DNA from: Sphingobacteriales bacterium
GTDB lineage: Bacteria; Bacteroidota; Bacteroidia; Chitinophagales; Chitinophagaceae
Assembly: GCA_027484425.1 (NCBI GenBank)
Contig: JAIXSZ010000044.1
Location: 1 to 64,000 of the forward strand
Reading direction: 5' to 3'
DNA: 64,000 bases
The position numbers and the translations under genes were made by a program. Below the pieces are notes generated by a model. It saw nothing but the letters and a program-made list of their open reading frames with translations, was not told the origin of the DNA and ran no database searches. Shown here piece after piece: positions 47,705 through 62,874 of the stretch. Position 1 is the first letter of the stretch. The number at the start of each line of letters is the position of its first letter.

Positions 47705-48511
47705 CTAACTATTTTGCTCAGATCTTATATTTTTCTTTAAATCTAATATCAAAGTTTTTAACTCCTGAATGTCCGTCTCTGGCTGTGGTAATGTTCCTGT
47801 CTGATGTTTGTAATACTTCCATATCTCTAGTATTTCCTCACTATTTACTGTATAGGGTGCATAGTTGCGGTTCAATGATTTTAGTATGACTTGATTATTA
47901 CTTTCCACTGTTACCAGCTTAAAGACAAAATCCTGTTCGCCTTTGAGTATGACAACACAAGGGGTTTCAGGTTTCAAGCTTTTCCAGTCCTGAACGTATT
48001 GCGCTATTACGTCGCTGTTTTCTGGTATAGGTAACATAGAGTCGCCAGTAGTAGGGAACATCCTAAATGTCCCCGTTTTAGGTAGGTTTGGCAAACTAAA
48101 CTTTGGCAAGGCAGCAATAAATTCTGGGTCATTATATCCGGCCCTGTATCCCGCTTTTGCTTTTACAGGTACGTATTCGGTATTTTCCTTGTTGTTTTTA
48201 TCTACTGTTATGGCTAGCACTCTTATGCCGCTACCTGTCATATACACATCGTTTCCCGTCATTAATTCCTTAAGTTTCAGCTCTCCTAATTTGTGCAGAT
48301 CAACCTTTAGTAGACTGTCAACGCTCACTTTGAAGTATTCAGAGAATTTTATCATATCCAATGCAGAAGGGTTAACTGTTTTCCCAGACTCCAATGCTTG
48401 AAGCTTATTTCTAGACAAATCAAGCTCAAATGAGATATCTTCTTGGCTCATTTTTTTTCGCTCTCTAAGAAATCTGATATTGCTGTGGAAAAAAAGTTTT
48501 GTCTGTGTCAT
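47705..48511 (-). CDS. LexA-like XRE-S24 self-cleaving repressor
   Basis: The protein is 268 residues. An XRE-type helix-turn-helix occupies about residues 10-65 (MSQEDISFELDLSRNKLQALESG). The C-terminal half is an S24 (LexA/UmuD-like) protease fold: a candidate Ala120-Gly121 cleavage site in VKAKAGY (a second Ala-Gly follows at 124-125), Ser158 in TGDSML and Lys198 in FVFKLV. The distances of about 37 and 40 residues match LexA (about 35 and 37). It should bind DNA, then cleave itself when RecA is activated by damage. It differs from classical LexA in having an XRE rather than winged-helix domain. It is divergent from imuA-imuB-dnaE2. Confidence 0.85.
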   Translation of the reverse strand: MTQTKLFFHSNIRFLRERKKMSQEDISFELDLSRNKLQALESGKTVNPSALDMIKFSEYFKVSVDSLLKVDLHKLGELKLKELMTGNDVYMTGSGIRVLAITVDKNNKENTEYVPVKAKAGYRAGYNDPEFIAALPKFSLPNLPKTGTFRMFPTTGDSMLPIPENSDVIAQYVQDWKSLKPETPCVVILKGEQDFVFKLVTVESNNQVILKSLNRNYAPYTVNSEEILEIWKYYKHQTGTLPQPETDIQELKTLILDLKKNIRSEQNS

Positions 48512-48529
48512 TCGGTATTGTTATTATTG
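48499..48529 (+). promoter_or_regulatory. Probable promoter of imuA-imuB-dnaE2, TTG-N20-TATTATTG
   Basis: TTG at 48499-48501 and TATTATTG at 48522-48529 (one mismatch to TAnnTTTG) are 20 bp apart. The predicted start is near 48536, just ahead of the inverted repeat at 48541. The -33 TTG falls within the repressor coding region. Confidence 0.45.
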
Positions 48530-48540
48530 GAAACATCTAA

Positions 48541-48559
48541 TTGTTGCCATTAGCAACAA
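48541..48559. promoter_or_regulatory. Candidate repressor operator TTGTTGC-N5-GCAACAA
   Basis: This is a perfect 7-bp inverted repeat with a 5-nt spacer (CATTA) in the 69-bp gap between the LexA-like gene and imuA. It lies immediately downstream of the predicted imuA start site and covers the predicted start and part of the -7 element of the divergent repressor promoter. A dimer bound here would block both transcripts. Confidence 0.6.
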
Positions 48560-48586
48560 ATTTAAACGATTTTATTCACAATGCAA
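48557..48586 (-). promoter_or_regulatory. Promoter of the LexA-like gene, TTG-N19-TAAATTTG
   Basis: On the minus strand the TTG (48586-48584) is exactly 19 bp from an exact -7 element (48564-48557). The -33 TTG lies in the first codons of imuA, and the transcription start would fall inside the inverted repeat at 48541-48559. Confidence 0.6.
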
Positions 48587-49309
48587 GCGGCCAAACACGA
48601 TATTATCCAACAATTGCAAAGGGAGGTACTTTCCTTGCAAAGGCATAAGAGTATTGCAGGTCAGCAACTCGTTACTGGATGGGGAGACATTGACAAAGCT
48701 TTCCCAGGGTATACCTTCCCATTAGGTGCCGTACATGAGTTTATAAGCACCAATAAAGAAAATGCCGCAGCTACTAATGGTTTTATGGCAGGGCTAGTAG
48801 GAAAAATAATGCAGAATAGAAAGCTGGTACTATGGATAAGTACCAAACGAACCCTTTTCCCTCCTGCTTTGAATATGTTCGGAATTGAGCCCGATCGAAT
48901 TGTTTTTATAGACCTATGTAAGCAGAAAGAAGTTTTGTGGGCAATAGAGGAAGCTTTGAAATGCAATGCACTTTCTGTAGTTGTGGGTGAACTAAGTGAA
49001 TTAAGTTTCACAGAATCAAGACGGCTTCAGTTAGCAGTAGAACAAAGCAAGGTAACTGGCTTTATTCATCGTTACAATCCAAGAACTGAAAATACAGTTG
49101 CCTGTGTTACACGCTGGAAGATTAGCCACCTTGCCAGCGAGATAAAAGGTATGCCGGGTGTTGGATTTCCTAAATGGAATGTTGCACTACTGAAAGTTAG
49201 GAATGGCAGACCTGGCTCATGGCATATTGAGTGGTCGGCAGACGGCTTTAAACAGATTGCACAACAGGCGTTCACATTTTCTGAAATGCTACAACGTAAA
49301 GCAGGATAA
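48581..49309 (+). CDS. imuA: ImuA-like RecA-fold accessory protein
   Basis: The 242 residues resemble the RecA-like ImuA of mutasome cassettes: LVTGWGDIDKAFPGYTFPLGAVHEF, then LVLWISTKRTLFPPALNMFGIEPDRIVFID and WHIEWSAD. The usual Walker A loop (GxxxxGKT) is not present (PLGAVHEFISTNKENAA), so ATPase activity is doubtful. It is the first gene of imuA-imuB-dnaE2, with 1 bp before imuB. It is thought to help the cassette synthesise across DNA damage. Confidence 0.85.
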   Translation: MQAAKHDIIQQLQREVLSLQRHKSIAGQQLVTGWGDIDKAFPGYTFPLGAVHEFISTNKENAAATNGFMAGLVGKIMQNRKLVLWISTKRTLFPPALNMFGIEPDRIVFIDLCKQKEVLWAIEEALKCNALSVVVGELSELSFTESRRLQLAVEQSKVTGFIHRYNPRTENTVACVTRWKISHLASEIKGMPGVGFPKWNVALLKVRNGRPGSWHIEWSADGFKQIAQQAFTFSEMLQRKAG

Positions 49310-49310
49310 T

Positions 49311-50810
49311 ATGGGCAAACGTTTTATAGCTATATGGTTTCGGCATCTTACAACAGATCGCATGGTTAGAATCCAGCCGGAATTGAAAGAAATTCCTTTC
49401 GTATTATCTGCACCAGAAAGGGGAAGGATGGTAATAAAAGCTGCTAATATAGCCGCACAGGAAATAGGAATCCATGTGAATATGGTTGTTGCTGATTGTA
49501 GGGCAATTTATCCTTCTTTAAAGGTTTATGATTACAAGCCTGAACTGGCTGAAAAGCTATTGAAAGCGCTTGCTGAATGGTGTCTGCGCTATACTCCTGT
49601 AGTAGCAATCGACTTACCGGATGGTCTTATTATGGATATAAGCGGATGTGCGCATTTATGGGGTGGTGAAAGACCCTACCTGAAGGAGCTTTTAACTAAG
49701 CTAAGAGGATATGGTTACGATGTACGAGCTGCAATTGCAGATTCAGTAGGTGCAGCTTGGGCAGTATCTCGTTTCGGCAAGGTTTCACCAATTGTAGAAT
49801 CAGGCAAGCAAATTGAGGTACTATTGCCATTGCCTCCTGCAGCTTTACGGCTAGAGGAGTCTACATTGGAGCTGCTTAACAAACTAGGACTGTGCCAGAT
49901 TAGCAGTTTTATTGCTATGCCCCGCAAGACGCTCCGTAGGCGATTCGGTCAAAACATACTCTCTAGACTAGATCAGGCAGTAGGGAAAGAGTACGAATTT
50001 ATATTGCCAATACAACCAGCAGAGCCTTATCAGGAGCGGTTACCAAGCTTAGAACCAATAAGGACGGCTAAAGGAATTGAAATTGCCCTGAACCAACTAT
50101 TAGAAAAGCTGTGTATACGGTTGACAAAAGAAGGCAAGGGTATAAGGAAATGTATTTTTAAATGCTACCGGATAGACGGTAATGTGCAGCAGATAGAAAT
50201 AGGCACCAACCAATCTTCACGCAATGTAAAACACTTGTTCAAACTATTTGAACTGAAAATAGCAACTATAGCACCAGCACTCGGCATTGAGGTATTTACT
50301 ATTGAAGCACCTATTGTAGAAGATACATCAGTAATACAGGATGCTTTATGGGATTTTACAGAGGGTGGCAACAGCACAGCAATTGCCGAATTGCTAGACA
50401 GGATAGCAGGGAAATTAGGTGTAGATACTATCCGCCGCTATCTGCCCGATGAGCATTACTGGCCTGAGCGATCTATGAAGGTAGCTTCATCGCTTGCCGA
50501 ATTGTCTGAAACAGGCTGGAGAACGGACATACCACGTCCTATACACCTTTTGTCGCATCCTGAAACAATTGAAGTAACCGTCCCCATGCCCGATTACCCA
50601 CCTTTACTTTTCAACTACAAAGGTGTATTACATCATGTAAAGAAAGCAGACGGTCCAGAGAGGATAGAGCAGGAGTGGTGGCTGCAGCAAGGGCTATTCA
50701 GAGATTACTATTGTATAGAAGATGAGCAAGGCGCAAGATATTGGCTATTTAGGTTGGGCAGCTATGATAGCGGCGAGCCTAAATGGTTTATGCATGGATT
50801 TTTTGCATAA
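49311..50810 (+). CDS. imuB: ImuB-like Y-family polymerase homologue, catalytically altered
   Basis: From the ATG at 49311, right after the imuA stop, the protein is 499 residues. The Y-family fold is recognisable (MVIKAANIAAQEIGI, DLPDGLIMDISGCAHLWGG, VRAAIADSVGAAWAVSRFG), but the metal-binding residues are replaced: no Asp follows the first strand (FIAIWFRHL) and Asp104-Gly105 stands where active enzymes have Asp-Glu. As in studied ImuB proteins, it is likely a non-catalytic adaptor linking the clamp, ImuA and DnaE2. I found no clear clamp-binding motif by eye. Confidence 0.88.
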   Translation: MGKRFIAIWFRHLTTDRMVRIQPELKEIPFVLSAPERGRMVIKAANIAAQEIGIHVNMVVADCRAIYPSLKVYDYKPELAEKLLKALAEWCLRYTPVVAIDLPDGLIMDISGCAHLWGGERPYLKELLTKLRGYGYDVRAAIADSVGAAWAVSRFGKVSPIVESGKQIEVLLPLPPAALRLEESTLELLNKLGLCQISSFIAMPRKTLRRRFGQNILSRLDQAVGKEYEFILPIQPAEPYQERLPSLEPIRTAKGIEIALNQLLEKLCIRLTKEGKGIRKCIFKCYRIDGNVQQIEIGTNQSSRNVKHLFKLFELKIATIAPALGIEVFTIEAPIVEDTSVIQDALWDFTEGGNSTAIAELLDRIAGKLGVDTIRRYLPDEHYWPERSMKVASSLAELSETGWRTDIPRPIHLLSHPETIEVTVPMPDYPPLLFNYKGVLHHVKKADGPERIEQEWWLQQGLFRDYYCIEDEQGARYWLFRLGSYDSGEPKWFMHGFFA

Positions 50811-50821
50811 AAAATAAAGAT

Positions 50822-53800
50822 ATGAGCTATACAGAATTACATATAACAACCAATTTTAGTTTTTTAAGGGGTGGCTCACATCCAGAAGAAATGGTAGAAC
50901 AGGCAATTTCGCTGGGGTATAAGGAAATAGCTATCACAGACCACAACACACTGGCAGGCATTGTGCGTGCTTACTCAGCTGCAAAAGGAAAAGACATACG
51001 CATTATACCAGCTTGTAGGCTAGACTTGCTAGATGGTGCAAGCCTGCTGGCATACCCTACAGACAAAGAAGCATATGCTCGGCTATCTGGATTGCTTACA
51101 GAGGGCAATATTCGGGCAGAGAAAGGCCAGTGTCATTTATACAAAGCAGATGTTTTCAGATTTGCAAAAGGTATAAAGTTCATAATTATTCCGCCTACTA
51201 CTTTGAATTCATCCTTTGAATTTGCACCTGAATTTATTGCAGAACTTATGGAATACAAATTAGCGCTGGGTAGTGACCTTTATCTAGGTGCTGTTCGCTC
51301 CTACAGGGCCAATGACACCAAGTTGCTATACCGATTAGCAGAAATATCAGAAAAGTTGAAAATACCATTGGTTGCCAATAATGACGTACATTATCACAAC
51401 AGAGAGCGCAGAGAATTGCAGGATATACTCACCTGCATACGTGAAAAGTGTACCATATACAACGCTGGTTTTCGGCTCTACCAGAATGCAGAACGCTACC
51501 TGAAACCTATAAATGAAATGAAACGCCTATTTAAGTTATACCCTGACGCTATAGCACGCACGCAGGAAATAGCTAAAGCATGTCGGTTCTGTCTGAGTGA
51601 ATTGAAATACGAATATCCCGAAGAAATTACTAGCGAAGGACGTAGCCCGCACGACGAGCTTATACATCTGACATGGCAAGGAGCAAACGAAAGATTTCCT
51701 GAAGGTATTCCTGAAAATATACAAACCACTATCAGGTATGAGCTCGAATTTATACAACGAAAAAATTATGCCGCCTATTTTTTGACCGTTTACGATTTCG
51801 TAAAGTTTGCCAGGAGCCGAAATATATTGTGTCAAGGGCGAGGGTCTGCTGCCAATTCAGTTGTATGTTATTGCCTTGGTATTACTTCTGTAAATCCAGC
51901 AAAATTCAAGCTACTTTTTGCTCGTTTTATGTCTGATGCCCGTAATGAGCCACCAGATATAGATGTTGACTTTGAGCATGAACGGAGAGAAGAAGTGATA
52001 CAATATATATATCAGAAGTACGGAAGAGATCGTGCCGCTATAGTGGCAACAGTTACACAGCTTCACTATAAGGGCGCAGTGCGTGATGTTGCAAAAGCAA
52101 TGGGCCTGTCAATAGATGCTATCAACCGTTTATCTAATTCGTCTTGGGAGTTTACATCAGAATGGTTTGAGGGTAAAGTAGTAACCTCAGATGGGTTTGA
52201 CTCCAAAGACCCACATCTTACAAAAGTACTTCGTCTTACACAGCAATATATAAGTTTTCCTAGGCAACTGGGGCAACATACTGGTGGTTTTGTGATAACG
52301 CAGGGTAAGCTGTCTGACCTATGTCCTGTTATGAATGCACGAATGGAAAACCGTACCTGTATAGAGTGGAATAAAGACGACATAGAAGCTTTGGGTTTCC
52401 TCAAAGTAGATGTATTGGCACTTGGAATGCTTACCTGCATCAGAAAAGCATTTGACCTAGCTAAGCAACATTACGGGCTAGACCTGACTCTGGCTAAAAT
52501 AAACGAGAAAGATGATGCTGCGGTATACGATATGATATGCCGGGCAGATACAATAGGTGTATTTCAAATAGAGAGCCGTGCGCAAATGTCTATGTTGCCC
52601 AGACTAAAACCAAGAACTTTTTATGACCTGGTAATAGAAGTGGCTATTGTAAGACCTGGCCCCATACAAGGCGATATGGTGCATCCCTACCTCCGCCGCA
52701 GAGATGGCAAAGAGCCAATAGTGTATCCAAAGCCGGAATTGGAGGAGATATTGGGAAGGACAAAGGGAGTGCCTCTTTTTCAGGAGCAAGCTATGGAAAT
52801 AGCAATAGTTGCCGCTGGATTTACCCCGGCAGAGGCCGATGGATTGCGCCGAAGCATGGCGACCTTTAAAGCGAAAGGAAAGGTAAGTGATTGGCATAAA
52901 AAGCTGGTAAGCGGCATGATGGCCAGAGGCTATGAAGAAGAGTTTGCGAATAGGGTATTCAAGCAATTGGAGGGCTTTGGTAGTTATGGATTCCCCGAAA
53001 GCCATGCAGCAAGTTTTGCGTTGCTTGTATATGTGTCTTGCTGGGTCAAGTGCTACTATCCCGATGTTTTTGCGGCCGCTCTACTCAATAGTATGCCTAT
53101 GGGTTTCTATCAGCCAGCACAGATTGTTATTGATGCTCGGAAGCATGGTGTGGAGATACTGCCAGTGGATATTAATTTTTCCTTCTGGGATAATACGCTC
53201 GACCATAGAACAGCTAAGTATTGCCCTATACGTTTAGGCTTCAGGCAGGTCAAAGGATTGAGTGAAGAGGATATTGCTATACTTGTAACAGCTCGTGCTA
53301 GCCAGTTTTTGAATATCACTTCACTGAGGGATGCAGGTGTGTCAATATCAGTATTAGAAAAGTTGGCAGATGCTGATGCGTTCAGGTCTATTGGTCTCGA
53401 CCGTCGGCAGGCACTTTGGGAGGTATCTGCACTTAACGACAGACCTACAGGTATATTTACAGGACAATTATCAGAAAGTGCAACAGAGCAAGATATTCTA
53501 CTTCCAACAATGACATTGTCAGAGCATGTCGTACAGGACTATGGTTCGATGTCATTGTCGCTAAAAGCGCATCCGGTTAGTTTTATAAGAGATAAATTGT
53601 TCCAATTAAGTATCCTGCCCACAAATGAACTTAATCTTTGGCCAGATGGAACACTTGTAAAGGTAGCAGGTTTGGTGCTGGTAAGGCAACGACCAGGTAC
53701 AGCAAGTGGCATATGCTTTATCACAATTGAGGATGAGAAAGGAACAGCCAACCTAGTTGTCTTTAAAAAGCTTTTTGATCAATACCGTAAAAATATACTG

Positions 53801-54052
53801 CAATCAAAGTTGCTGATGGTAGAAGGTAAGCTACAAAGAGAAGGGGATGTAACACACGTAGTAGTGAAAAGGTGTTTTAATTTGTCTGGATTGTTACAAA
53901 AACTAACTGCAACTGACCAACCCAATGCGGAATTATTGACTTTATCCCGAGCAGATGAAAAAGTGGATGAAAACTATGCTAATAAGGATAATAGAGTAAA
54001 AGGTATGATGGTGCAGGGCGACATTTTTCATGGAGGCAGGAATTTCCGGTAA
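50822..54052 (+). CDS. dnaE2: Error-prone DNA polymerase DnaE2
   Basis: The protein is 1076 residues from the ATG at 50822. A PHP domain comes first, with a degenerate metal-site start (LHITTNFSFLRGGS rather than HxH), then the C-family polymerase palm with catalytic Asp381/Asp383 in PDIDVDF and Asp530 in KVDVLALGML. An OB-fold lies near the C terminus (VKVAGLVLVRQRPGTASGICFITIEDEKG). Its length and its place after imuB indicate DnaE2, the translesion polymerase of the cassette, rather than replicative DnaE1. A hairpin terminator follows. Confidence 0.93.
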   Translation: MSYTELHITTNFSFLRGGSHPEEMVEQAISLGYKEIAITDHNTLAGIVRAYSAAKGKDIRIIPACRLDLLDGASLLAYPTDKEAYARLSGLLTEGNIRAEKGQCHLYKADVFRFAKGIKFIIIPPTTLNSSFEFAPEFIAELMEYKLALGSDLYLGAVRSYRANDTKLLYRLAEISEKLKIPLVANNDVHYHNRERRELQDILTCIREKCTIYNAGFRLYQNAERYLKPINEMKRLFKLYPDAIARTQEIAKACRFCLSELKYEYPEEITSEGRSPHDELIHLTWQGANERFPEGIPENIQTTIRYELEFIQRKNYAAYFLTVYDFVKFARSRNILCQGRGSAANSVVCYCLGITSVNPAKFKLLFARFMSDARNEPPDIDVDFEHERREEVIQYIYQKYGRDRAAIVATVTQLHYKGAVRDVAKAMGLSIDAINRLSNSSWEFTSEWFEGKVVTSDGFDSKDPHLTKVLRLTQQYISFPRQLGQHTGGFVITQGKLSDLCPVMNARMENRTCIEWNKDDIEALGFLKVDVLALGMLTCIRKAFDLAKQHYGLDLTLAKINEKDDAAVYDMICRADTIGVFQIESRAQMSMLPRLKPRTFYDLVIEVAIVRPGPIQGDMVHPYLRRRDGKEPIVYPKPELEEILGRTKGVPLFQEQAMEIAIVAAGFTPAEADGLRRSMATFKAKGKVSDWHKKLVSGMMARGYEEEFANRVFKQLEGFGSYGFPESHAASFALLVYVSCWVKCYYPDVFAAALLNSMPMGFYQPAQIVIDARKHGVEILPVDINFSFWDNTLDHRTAKYCPIRLGFRQVKGLSEEDIAILVTARASQFLNITSLRDAGVSISVLEKLADADAFRSIGLDRRQALWEVSALNDRPTGIFTGQLSESATEQDILLPTMTLSEHVVQDYGSMSLSLKAHPVSFIRDKLFQLSILPTNELNLWPDGTLVKVAGLVLVRQRPGTASGICFITIEDEKGTANLVVFKKLFDQYRKNILQSKLLMVEGKLQREGDVTHVVVKRCFNLSGLLQKLTATDQPNAELLTLSRADEKVDENYANKDNRVKGMMVQGDIFHGGRNFR

Positions 54053-61728: not shown

Positions 61729-62874
61729 CTAATTGCTACTAATTTGTGCACCTGCCTCTGATGTTACTGTTTTATTTTCTGCGATATTGTCTGTTATCAA
61801 TACTGTATTTTCAGTAATTCCACTTAATACCTGTACCCATTCGTTGCTCACAAATTTTGTTTCCAACTTCACTTTCTCCTTTTTACCCTTAACATGAACA
61901 TAGCCGCCAAAATCAATGTACTTCCTTGGAATAAGTAATGCGTTTTTGTTTTCCGATACAATTATATTGGCTTGAAGTTGGGTCTTTATAATTGTAAAAT
62001 CGATAGGCGCACTCAGGACAATTTTACAAATGAATGATTGGGATGATTCGTCGAAAGAGGGGGATATTTCAGATACCCGTCCTTTATAGGTTTTCGTTTT
62101 GCTGATGTTAAGTTTTACGATTGCATCCTGTCCTATTTTTATTCTTTCAATATTGCCTTCGTCAATATTCACTTTGGCATAAATGAATTTGGGGTCTCCA
62201 ATAGTTGCAATTACATCGCCTTTTCTTACAAAGTCTCCTGGCTCTTTGAGTTTTTTATATATTCTTCCTCCAACCACGGCCTTAATGGAATTGCGTGACG
62301 ATTGTGAACTATATATCTTTTTTGCCGTAATGCTGTTAATCAATTGCTGGTCGGCTTGCTGCTTTAGCAAACGATAGTTTTCACGTGCTGATCGATTATT
62401 AGCCTTTGATGTTGCAAACTGCAACAAGTAATTCTCGTACTCAGTTTTGGAAACTGCGTTCTTTTCATAAAGCACTTTATACCGTGAAAACTGGATAGAG
62501 TCGATTTCTTTTTTCTCATCTGAAAGTTGTAATGCTGATTCTGCCTGCAGCAAAGCGGGTGCATTCATTTTTGTGTTCGCTTCAGCTATTGTGTAAAGAG
62601 CCCTCGAACTTTCATCGTTAAACAGATTCTCGCTGTTATCCACAGTCGCCAGTACTGTTCCAGAAACGATATCATCACCTTCATGAAATGCCATTTTTGT
62701 TAGATAACCATCTACTTCAGCTTTCAGGTCATAGGTGTTGTCTGCTTCCAGAAAGCCAGATGCGAATACAAGTTCTGTTACATCTTTTTTTATAGGAGAG
62801 ATTTCTTCTGTCTTTTTACCACAGGAAGTAAGCGCTGCTATAAAAGCAGCCGCTATTACGGATGTTTTATTCAT
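61729..62874 (-). CDS. Efflux adaptor (HlyD/MacA-like) lipoprotein
   Basis: The protein has 381 residues with a lipobox (FIAALTSC). Lipoyl half-motifs (DLKAEVDGYLTKMAFHEGDDIVSGTVLATVD and KAVVGGRIYKKLKEPGDFVRKGDVIATIGDP) surround a coiled-coil hairpin, then come beta-barrel and membrane-proximal parts. It is the periplasmic adaptor between the MacB-like permease and TolC. It overlaps the TolC-family gene by 4 bp; 80 bp separate it from the permease gene downstream. Confidence 0.88.
   Translation of the reverse strand: MNKTSVIAAAFIAALTSCGKKTEEISPIKKDVTELVFASGFLEADNTYDLKAEVDGYLTKMAFHEGDDIVSGTVLATVDNSENLFNDESSRALYTIAEANTKMNAPALLQAESALQLSDEKKEIDSIQFSRYKVLYEKNAVSKTEYENYLLQFATSKANNRSARENYRLLKQQADQQLINSITAKKIYSSQSSRNSIKAVVGGRIYKKLKEPGDFVRKGDVIATIGDPKFIYAKVNIDEGNIERIKIGQDAIVKLNISKTKTYKGRVSEISPSFDESSQSFICKIVLSAPIDFTIIKTQLQANIIVSENKNALLIPRKYIDFGGYVHVKGKKEKVKLETKFVSNEWVQVLSGITENTVLITDNIAENKTVTSEAGAQISSN

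What the first reader, a model, noticed from the sequence alone, without database searches (positions are those of the whole stretch)
48499..48586. LexA-like XRE-S24 repressor and imuA-imuB-dnaE2 share one palindrome placed between two divergent promoters
Seen: a 69-bp gap holds TTGTTGC-N5-GCAACAA (48541-48559). A TTG-N20-TATTATTG promoter points at imuA and a TTG-N19-TAAATTTG promoter points at the repressor; both predicted starts fall at or beside the palindrome. Known: LexA controls dnaE2 cassettes in other phyla, and S24 repressors cleave at Ala-Gly using Ser-Lys. Inference: this is the operator of an SOS-like switch in Bacteroidota, with an XRE rather than a winged-helix domain and a new operator sequence.
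Basis: partly seen in the sequence, partly recalled or inferred. Interest (0 to 1): 0.65.

Follow-up and report, generated by a model that had tools for sequence, protein, structure and literature searches.

The report
Dedicated SOS repressor for mutagenesis cassette
A phage-type, self-cleaving repressor sits back to back with a DNA-mutagenesis gene set and shares two adjacent binding sites with it, so a known bacterial emergency-repair circuit has here been given a private, locally tailored switch; the repressor type and this kind of control are already published, while this private version and its operators are a new variant.

Summary
In detail: TTGTTGC-CATTA-GCAACAA lies at 48541-48559 between an XRE-S24 repressor gene (-) and imuA-imuB-dnaE2 (+), with two opposed Bacteroidota-type promoters. 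A second 17-bp site of the same geometry (48519-48535) lies 23 bp away, is invariant in seven close relatives, and holds the imuA -7 box. In relatives both sites recur at the same spacing, while the inner half-site bases change by lineage. Unlinked imuA copies in genomes that encode such a repressor elsewhere carry the same pair. Among 41 imuA promoters, the pair occurs in 9 of 12 from genomes with this repressor and 0 of 29 without; the known CTAA-N5-TTAG box occurs in 0 of 12 and 21 of 29. So the cassette has been moved from the global repressor to a private one. In this genome the operator occurs only here. Non-canonical (HTH+S24) LexA proteins of Bacteroidetes, with imuA-imuB-dnaE2 targets and one diverged, polymerase-linked case, were published in 2021; Pseudomonas putida LexA2 is a functional precedent. 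Verdict: real, a new variant of a known kind. Binding, RecA dependence and induction by DNA damage are inferred, not shown.

The parts
47705..48511 (-). XRE-S24 repressor, 268 aa: five-helix HTH (recognition helix about residues 34-42), linker, S24 domain with Ala120-Gly121 scissile bond, Ser158, Lys198, and a C-terminal helix 248-266
   Evidence: ORF; PF12844 and PF00717 above cut-off; alignment; AlphaFold2 model; structural matches to LexA and lambda/P22 repressors
48519..48535 (.). operator site 1, TGTTAT-TATTG-GAAACA (imperfect here, perfect TGTTAT-TATTG-ATAACA in L014, L015, L025); contains the imuA -7 box
   Evidence: 17 of 17 bases invariant in 7 close relatives; only exact genome match
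48541..48559 (.). operator site 2, TTGTTGC-CATTA-GCAACAA; overlaps the repressor -7 box
48499..48501 (+). -33 element (TTG of TTTTG) of the imuA promoter
   Evidence: sequence; consensus PMC6847099
48522..48529 (+). -7 element TATTATTG of the imuA promoter, predicted start about 48534
   Evidence: a TAnnWTTG box is kept in 13 of 18 divergent repressor-polymerase pairs
48557..48564 (-). -7 element TAAATTTG of the repressor promoter, predicted start about 48552
   Evidence: CAAAnnTA present in 18 of 18 divergent pairs (in L019 and L021 it lies at the end of site 1 instead)
48584..48586 (-). -33 element (TTG) of the repressor promoter
   Evidence: sequence
48581..49309 (+). imuA, 242 aa
   Evidence: (NF033429, below the curated cut-off)
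49311..50810 (+). imuB (Y-family, IMS domain), starts 2 bases after the imuA stop
50822..54052 (+). dnaE2, error-prone polymerase III alpha, 1076 aa
   Evidence: NF004225, 1364.8 bits

Best explanation
This is a private, cassette-dedicated switch of the non-canonical-LexA type. Repressor dimers bind two tandem 17-bp sites (TGNNNN-N5-NNNNCA, centres 23 bp apart, about two helical turns). Site 1 covers the imuA -7 box and predicted start; site 2 covers the repressor -7 box and start, so both divergent promoters are shut. After DNA damage, RecA filaments trigger self-cleavage at Ala120-Gly121 through Ser158/Lys198, the sites empty, and imuA-imuB-dnaE2 and the repressor are made together, the latter restoring repression. 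Shown here: both sites, their conservation, placement on promoters, match to the repressor lineage even at unlinked imuA copies, mutual exclusion with the CTAA-N5-TTAG box, uniqueness in the genome. Inferred: binding, cooperativity, cleavage, induction.
For: Two sites 23 bp apart. In seven close relatives 28 of 34 site bases are invariant against 9 of 26 outside, p=0.0004. The pair with lineage-specific inner bases recurs in divergent repressor-imuA and repressor-Y-polymerase loci. Predicted then found: unlinked imuA of G001 (TGTCAC-N5-GTGACA), the second imuA of G101 (TGTCAC-N5-ATGACA), G026 (TGATAC-N5-ATATCA) and G182, each with a partner site 23 bp away; in G001, G101 and G026 the bases match that genome's repressor promoter. 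Pair in 9/12 imuA promoters with the repressor vs 0/29 without (p=6e-7); CTAA-N5-TTAG in 0/12 vs 21/29 (p=2e-5). Half-site divergence tracks HTH divergence after control for the C-terminal domain (partial r 0.22-0.28, at most 4 of 2000 permutations). Cleavage residues conserved. S24 fold matches LexA, Z 13.2, and the CI-RecA complex 8gmu, Z 10.3. imu-linked repressors form an 11-row clade, 95/94. Three subfamily repressors precede an AlkB-type gene.
Against: No binding, cleavage or expression data. Site 1 is only 4/6 symmetric in this genome, so its occupancy may depend on site 2. Three of 12 imuA promoters in genomes with the repressor miss the strict pair test, though L019 and L021 carry relaxed versions. 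The covariation signal is not confined to the recognition helix, and the partial Mantel test is liberal. Upstream matches in the order's other families are patchier. L019 and L021 have Met-Gly at the cleavage position.
Confidence: 0.8

Rival explanations
1. The repressor controls only itself, and imuA is controlled by another (global) LexA; the shared gap is incidental.
For: Repressor genes that stand alone still keep the sites and their own -7 box, so self-control alone is possible. A second S24 repressor exists in the genome.
Against: No CTAA-N5-TTAG or CCAA-N5-TTGG site lies at imuA here. Site 1 covers the imuA -7 box. Unlinked imuA promoters carry the same pair in genomes with the repressor and never in genomes without it.
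Confidence: 0.07
2. The repressor responds to a signal other than RecA and DNA damage (for example a co-repressor or protease, as DdrO of Deinococcus) and the S24 domain is a relic.
For: Met-Gly replaces Ala-Gly in L019 and L021. No cleavage was tested.
Against: Gly121, Ser158 and Lys198 are invariant in 26 aligned sequences and Ala120 is at least 90%. Target genes are translesion polymerases, and AlkB-type genes lie next to some relatives. Published relatives are induced by mitomycin C (PMC8565304).
Confidence: 0.1
3. The inverted repeat is chance, or a structural element such as a terminator or attenuator, not an operator.
For: A 7-N5-7 palindrome arises in 1.4% of shuffles of this gap.
Against: Conserved position and geometry with compensating changes in both arms across lineages. 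It lies upstream of both predicted coding starts and on both promoters, with no T-run terminator feature.
Confidence: 0.03

Closest known systems
Non-canonical LexA of Bacteroidetes, CTAA-N5-TTAG group (Sanchez-Osuna et al. 2021, PMC8565304)
   Same: CI-type HTH plus S24 domain with Ala-Gly/Ser-Lys, extra C-terminal helix, self-regulation, palindromes with an N5 spacer, imuA-imuB-dnaE2 and Y-polymerases as targets. Tandem sites at the repressor's own promoter also occur there (22 bp apart in L034, L035, L036, L038).
   Different: Separate clade, about 28-35% identity; operator TGTTGC-N5-GCAACA, not CTAA-N5-TTAG; one-locus regulon here; divergent from the cassette.
Elizabethkingia anophelis paralog with TTAC-AAATT-GTAA (same paper)
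   Same: Diverged 4-N5-4 operator, gene divergent from an error-prone polymerase, binding and mitomycin C induction shown. L030 in my set has the same TTAC-N5-GTAA dyad.
   Different: Weeksellaceae; its partner is described only as an error-prone polymerase; different inner bases. I could not obtain that protein to place it in the tree.
Pseudomonas putida LexA2 with lexA2-imuA-imuB-imuC (PMC3901139, PMC5261740)
   Same: A second LexA-type repressor dedicated to the imu cassette, beside a global regulator with its own regulon.
   Different: The HTH type found here differs from LexA's winged helix, so the likeness is convergent; P. putida lexA2 is co-transcribed with the cassette, here it is divergent.
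HdiR (Streptococcaceae) and UmuDAb (Acinetobacter), as described in PMC8565304
   Same: S24 regulators with small SOS-like regulons centred on error-prone polymerases.
   Different: Different phyla and lineages; no imuA cassette described.

Membership tests
Non-canonical LexA family of Bacteroidetes (broad sense, including diverged paralogs) | N-terminal CI-type HTH (PF01381 class), not winged helix | tested here: met
   HTH_19 1.4e-12 and HTH_3 1.3e-8; five N-terminal helices in the model; P22 c2, SinR and DdrO domains match
Non-canonical LexA family of Bacteroidetes (broad sense, including diverged paralogs) | S24 domain with Ala-Gly bond and Ser-Lys dyad | tested here: met
   PF00717 24.5 bits, cut-off 23.3; A120-G121, S158, K198 in the alignment
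Non-canonical LexA family of Bacteroidetes (broad sense, including diverged paralogs) | Palindrome with fixed N5 spacer in the gene's own promoter | tested here: met
   TTGC-N5-GCAA plus a second site
Non-canonical LexA family of Bacteroidetes (broad sense, including diverged paralogs) | Specific binding and induction by DNA damage | not testable with these tools
   No expression or binding data
CTAA-N5-TTAG group | CTAA-N5-TTAG operator | tested here: not met
   None upstream of repressor or imuA
CTAA-N5-TTAG group | Groups with the CTAA-type regulators in the tree | tested here: not met
   Most CTAA-type regulators of the same family fall in another clade; imu-linked rows form an 11-row clade, 95/94; deep root unsure
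LexA in the functional sense (control of a whole SOS network) | Operator copies at recA, umuC/dinB and other repair genes | tested here: not met
   No TTGC-N5-GCAA at recA, dinB or umuC; all one-mismatch genome copies lie in genes; only the two sites here match the joint consensus exactly
Canonical LexA | Winged-helix LexA DNA-binding domain (PF01726) | tested here: not met
   No PF01726 match in Pfam; other HTH families match instead
P. putida LexA2 type cassette | lexA2 co-transcribed with imuA-imuB-imuC | tested here: not met
   Repressor lies on the opposite strand

The most novel reading that the evidence does not exclude
A clade of polymerase-linked repressors in Chitinophagaceae and neighbouring families has taken the imuA-imuB-dnaE2 cassette out of the global CTAA-N5-TTAG regulon. 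Its tandem operator keeps outer TG/CA, N5 and 23-bp spacing while inner half-site bases diversify along with the HTH (for example Lys36 with a pyrimidine, Thr/Ile36 with a purine, at half-site position 6). This would be a natural series showing how LexA-type operators switch.
Probability: 0.6. Interest if true: 0.6.

Novelty: new variant of a known kind. Interest (0 to 1): 0.5.

Why it matters
SOS operators are known to change strongly between bacterial groups, and the published model is duplication, divergence and re-capture of target genes. Here the hand-over can be seen as an either/or pattern for one target cassette in one family (private tandem operator or global box, never both in the set examined), and the operator letters vary while the architecture stays fixed. 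That makes operator switching directly testable with small DNA probes and a handful of related repressors. It also means mutagenesis in these bacteria may be induced separately from the rest of DNA repair.

Tried and rejected
(1) A genome-wide regulon for TTGTTGC-N5-GCAACAA: 60 sites with up to 2 mismatches; the 1-mismatch ones (including window 62409-62427) are inside genes, and of the 2-mismatch ones examined only L127, L137 and L145 are intergenic, all weak. The reversed-pattern control is not a fair null because of base order. The joint consensus of both sites finds no more than its control (38/34 against 36/42), with only the two known sites exact. (2) The second S24 repressor of the genome (C23, L002/L060) as the global LexA of this cassette: its promoter carries TCCAA-N5-TTGGA, not our sequence; it sits beside a MuB-like transposition gene. 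(3) Per-residue mutual information: several HTH residues associate with half-site bases, not only recognition-helix ones, so no contact code is claimed. (4) Placing the published E. anophelis regulator: protein not obtainable here. (5) Whole genome as file, supplementary tables of PMC8565304 and the paper PMC1326238: not available, so I cannot say whether TTGC-N5-GCAA is listed in that 2021 paper's Table S10.

Full report
Observation. The 19-bp inverted repeat TTGTTGC-CATTA-GCAACAA is at 48541-48559 in the 69-bp gap between a 268-aa repressor gene (47705-48511, minus) and imuA (48581-49309), followed by imuB and dnaE2. With the Bacteroidetes consensus TTTG/TAHHTTTG and G at -5 (PMC6847099) the predicted starts are about 48534 for imuA and 48552 for the repressor. 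By shuffling alone the palindrome would be modest evidence (1.4% for N5, about 10% for any spacer 0-12).

The gap holds two sites. Site 1, TGTTAT-TATTG-GAAACA (48519-48535), lies 23 bp before site 2, TGTTGC-CATTA-GCAACA (48542-48558), in the same 6-N5-6 register. Site 1 is 4/6 symmetric here but a perfect palindrome in L014, L015 and L025. In seven close relatives (L001, L013, L042-L046; Taibaiella/Flavipsychrobacter MAGs among them) all 17 bases of site 1 and 11 of 17 of site 2 are invariant, against 9 of 26 outside the sites (Fisher p=0.0004). Site 1 contains the imuA -7 box, and site 2 ends in the repressor -7 box.

The protein. HTH_19, HTH_3 and Peptidase_S24 match above the curated cut-offs. 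Alignment of 26 relatives keeps Gly121, Ser158 and Lys198 invariant and Ala120 at 90% or more. The AlphaFold2 model (mean pLDDT 74, pTM 0.46, so domain arrangement is unsure) has five N-terminal helices, an S24-type C-terminal domain and a last helix 248-266. The C-terminal domain matches LexA structures (Z 13.2 to 10.3) and lambda repressor bound to RecA (8gmu, Z 10.3); the N-terminal domain matches SinR, P22 c2 and DdrO. This is the architecture of the non-canonical LexA proteins described in 2021, including the extra C-terminal helix (PMC8565304).

Relatives and operators. In the window's family, 181 of 195 genomes hold some homolog, but only about 24 matches stand out as close (E below 1e-60); the rest score near 1e-30, and those examined fall in other clades, mostly with CTAA-N5-TTAG in front of the gene. 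The close subfamily is divergent from imuA in L001, L013, L014, L015, L019, L021, L025 and L042-L046, and from a Y-family polymerase in L016, L020, L022, L024, L095 and, in other families of the order, L073, L077 and others. Where I could read the sites, the architecture is TGNNNN-N5-NNNNCA twice, 23 bp apart (24 in a few); the inner bases differ by lineage: TTGC, TCAC/TCAT, GTAC/GTAT, ATAC, TTCA, TTTA. Upstream sequences in the more distant families are patchier, partly because start codons are uncertain.

Test of cognate pairing. If the sites belong to the repressor, an imuA that is not next to the repressor should carry the same bases as that genome's repressor promoter. One search suggested this for G026; I then fetched G001 and the second imuA of G101 expecting TGTCAY-N5-RTGACA. 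Found: TGTCAC-CAATA-GTGACA and TGTCAC-TAATA-ATGACA, each with a TATTATTG-containing partner 23 bp upstream. G026 has TGTTAT-TATTG-AGATCA and TGATAC-TAAAG-ATATCA, 23 bp apart; its repressor promoter has TGATAT-TATTG-GTATCA. G182 also has a pair 23 bp apart, but its bases do not clearly match its repressors' promoters; G188 has none. Over 41 imuA promoters, the tandem pair is in 9 of 12 from genomes with the subfamily repressor and 0 of 29 without (p=6e-7), and CTAA-N5-TTAG is in 0 of 12 and 21 of 29 (p=1.6e-5). The set with the repressor includes linked and unlinked imuA; the genomes are related, so the p-values overstate independence.

Covariation. Half-site distance correlates with distance in the HTH after control for the C-terminal domain (partial r 0.24 recognition helix, 0.22 and 0.28 other HTH parts; at most 4 of 2000 permutations), while the C-terminal domain adds little once the recognition helix is controlled (0.08). 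Lys36 goes with C/T at half-site position 6 in 24 of 25 members, Thr/Ile36 with A/G in 6 of 6; CTAA- and CCAA-type regulators mostly have Leu/Thr36 and an A there. The test is liberal and I claim no contact code.

Tree. A maximum-likelihood tree of 97 regulators places the imu-linked rows in an 11-row clade (95/94) inside a polymerase-linked group, apart from most CTAA-type regulators of the same family; L025, also imu-linked, branches nearby, so imu linkage needs two changes. Deep branches are weak.

In this genome. There are two S24 proteins only. The other one is at C23, has TCCAA-N5-TTGGA at its promoter and lies beside a MuB-like gene. recA and dinB lack both site types; the umuC-like gene has CCAA-TATTC-TTGG at -39. 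Copies of the palindrome elsewhere are inside genes or weak, and the joint consensus matches exactly only at the two sites here. So the regulon is most likely this one locus. Two other genomes of the same genus lack imuA and this repressor altogether.

Mechanism. Most likely each site blocks one promoter, dimers on the two sites sit on roughly the same DNA face, and RecA-triggered self-cleavage releases both promoters. Occupancy, cooperativity, cleavage and induction are inferences from the family; the published relatives bind their N5 palindromes and are induced by mitomycin C (PMC8565304).

Known or new. The type of repressor, SOS control of imuA-imuB-dnaE2 in this phylum, the N5 palindrome geometry and a diverged polymerase-linked paralog are published (PMC8565304). 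A private second LexA for an imu cassette is known from P. putida (PMC3901139, PMC5261740). I found no paper describing this Chitinophagaceae subfamily, the tandem operator, or the mutual exclusion with the CTAA box, within an open-licence library and without the 2021 supplement. I rate it a new variant of a known kind.

Noticed in passing
L017:2338-3003, L069:1917-2582, L018:2363-2968: Where the subfamily repressor is not divergent from a polymerase, in three genomes the next gene downstream on the same strand is an AlkB-like 2OG-Fe(II) oxygenase (PF13532), which suggests a repressor-alkB unit under the same tandem operator.
   Followed up: partly
L019 and L021, alignment column of residue 120: The two TGGTAC/TGGTAT-operator repressors have Met-Gly instead of Ala-Gly at the expected cleavage bond.
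   Followed up: no
L147, L152, L049, upstream of imuA: A third kind of imuA operator, TGTCAA-N5-TTGACA, in genomes where no subfamily repressor was found or linked; regulator unknown.
   Followed up: no
L047, L048, L149, upstream of imuA: Other imuA promoters carry inverted repeats around TTTGTACAA / TTGTACAAATGTGCAAA, a further possible operator type.
   Followed up: no
L002:1-2319 (G000 C23): Second S24 repressor of the genome, conserved in two genus mates, divergent from a MuB-like transposition gene; a Bac_DnaA_C-type gene lies next to it in one mate, and TCCAA-N5-TTGGA lies in front; domesticated or resident Mu-like element.
   Followed up: partly
L055 (G000 C68), 39 bases before the umuC-like gene: CCAA-TATTC-TTGG, the same dyad as in front of the C23 repressor.
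   Followed up: no
L074, L082, L083, L084: One in-frame stop reported inside the matched repressor stretch in four genomes of the order; possible decay or sequencing error.
   Followed up: no
window 62409-62427: ATGTTGCAAACTGCAACAA, one mismatch to the operator, but inside the coding sequence of a membrane-fusion-type protein (61729-62874); probably chance.
   Followed up: yes
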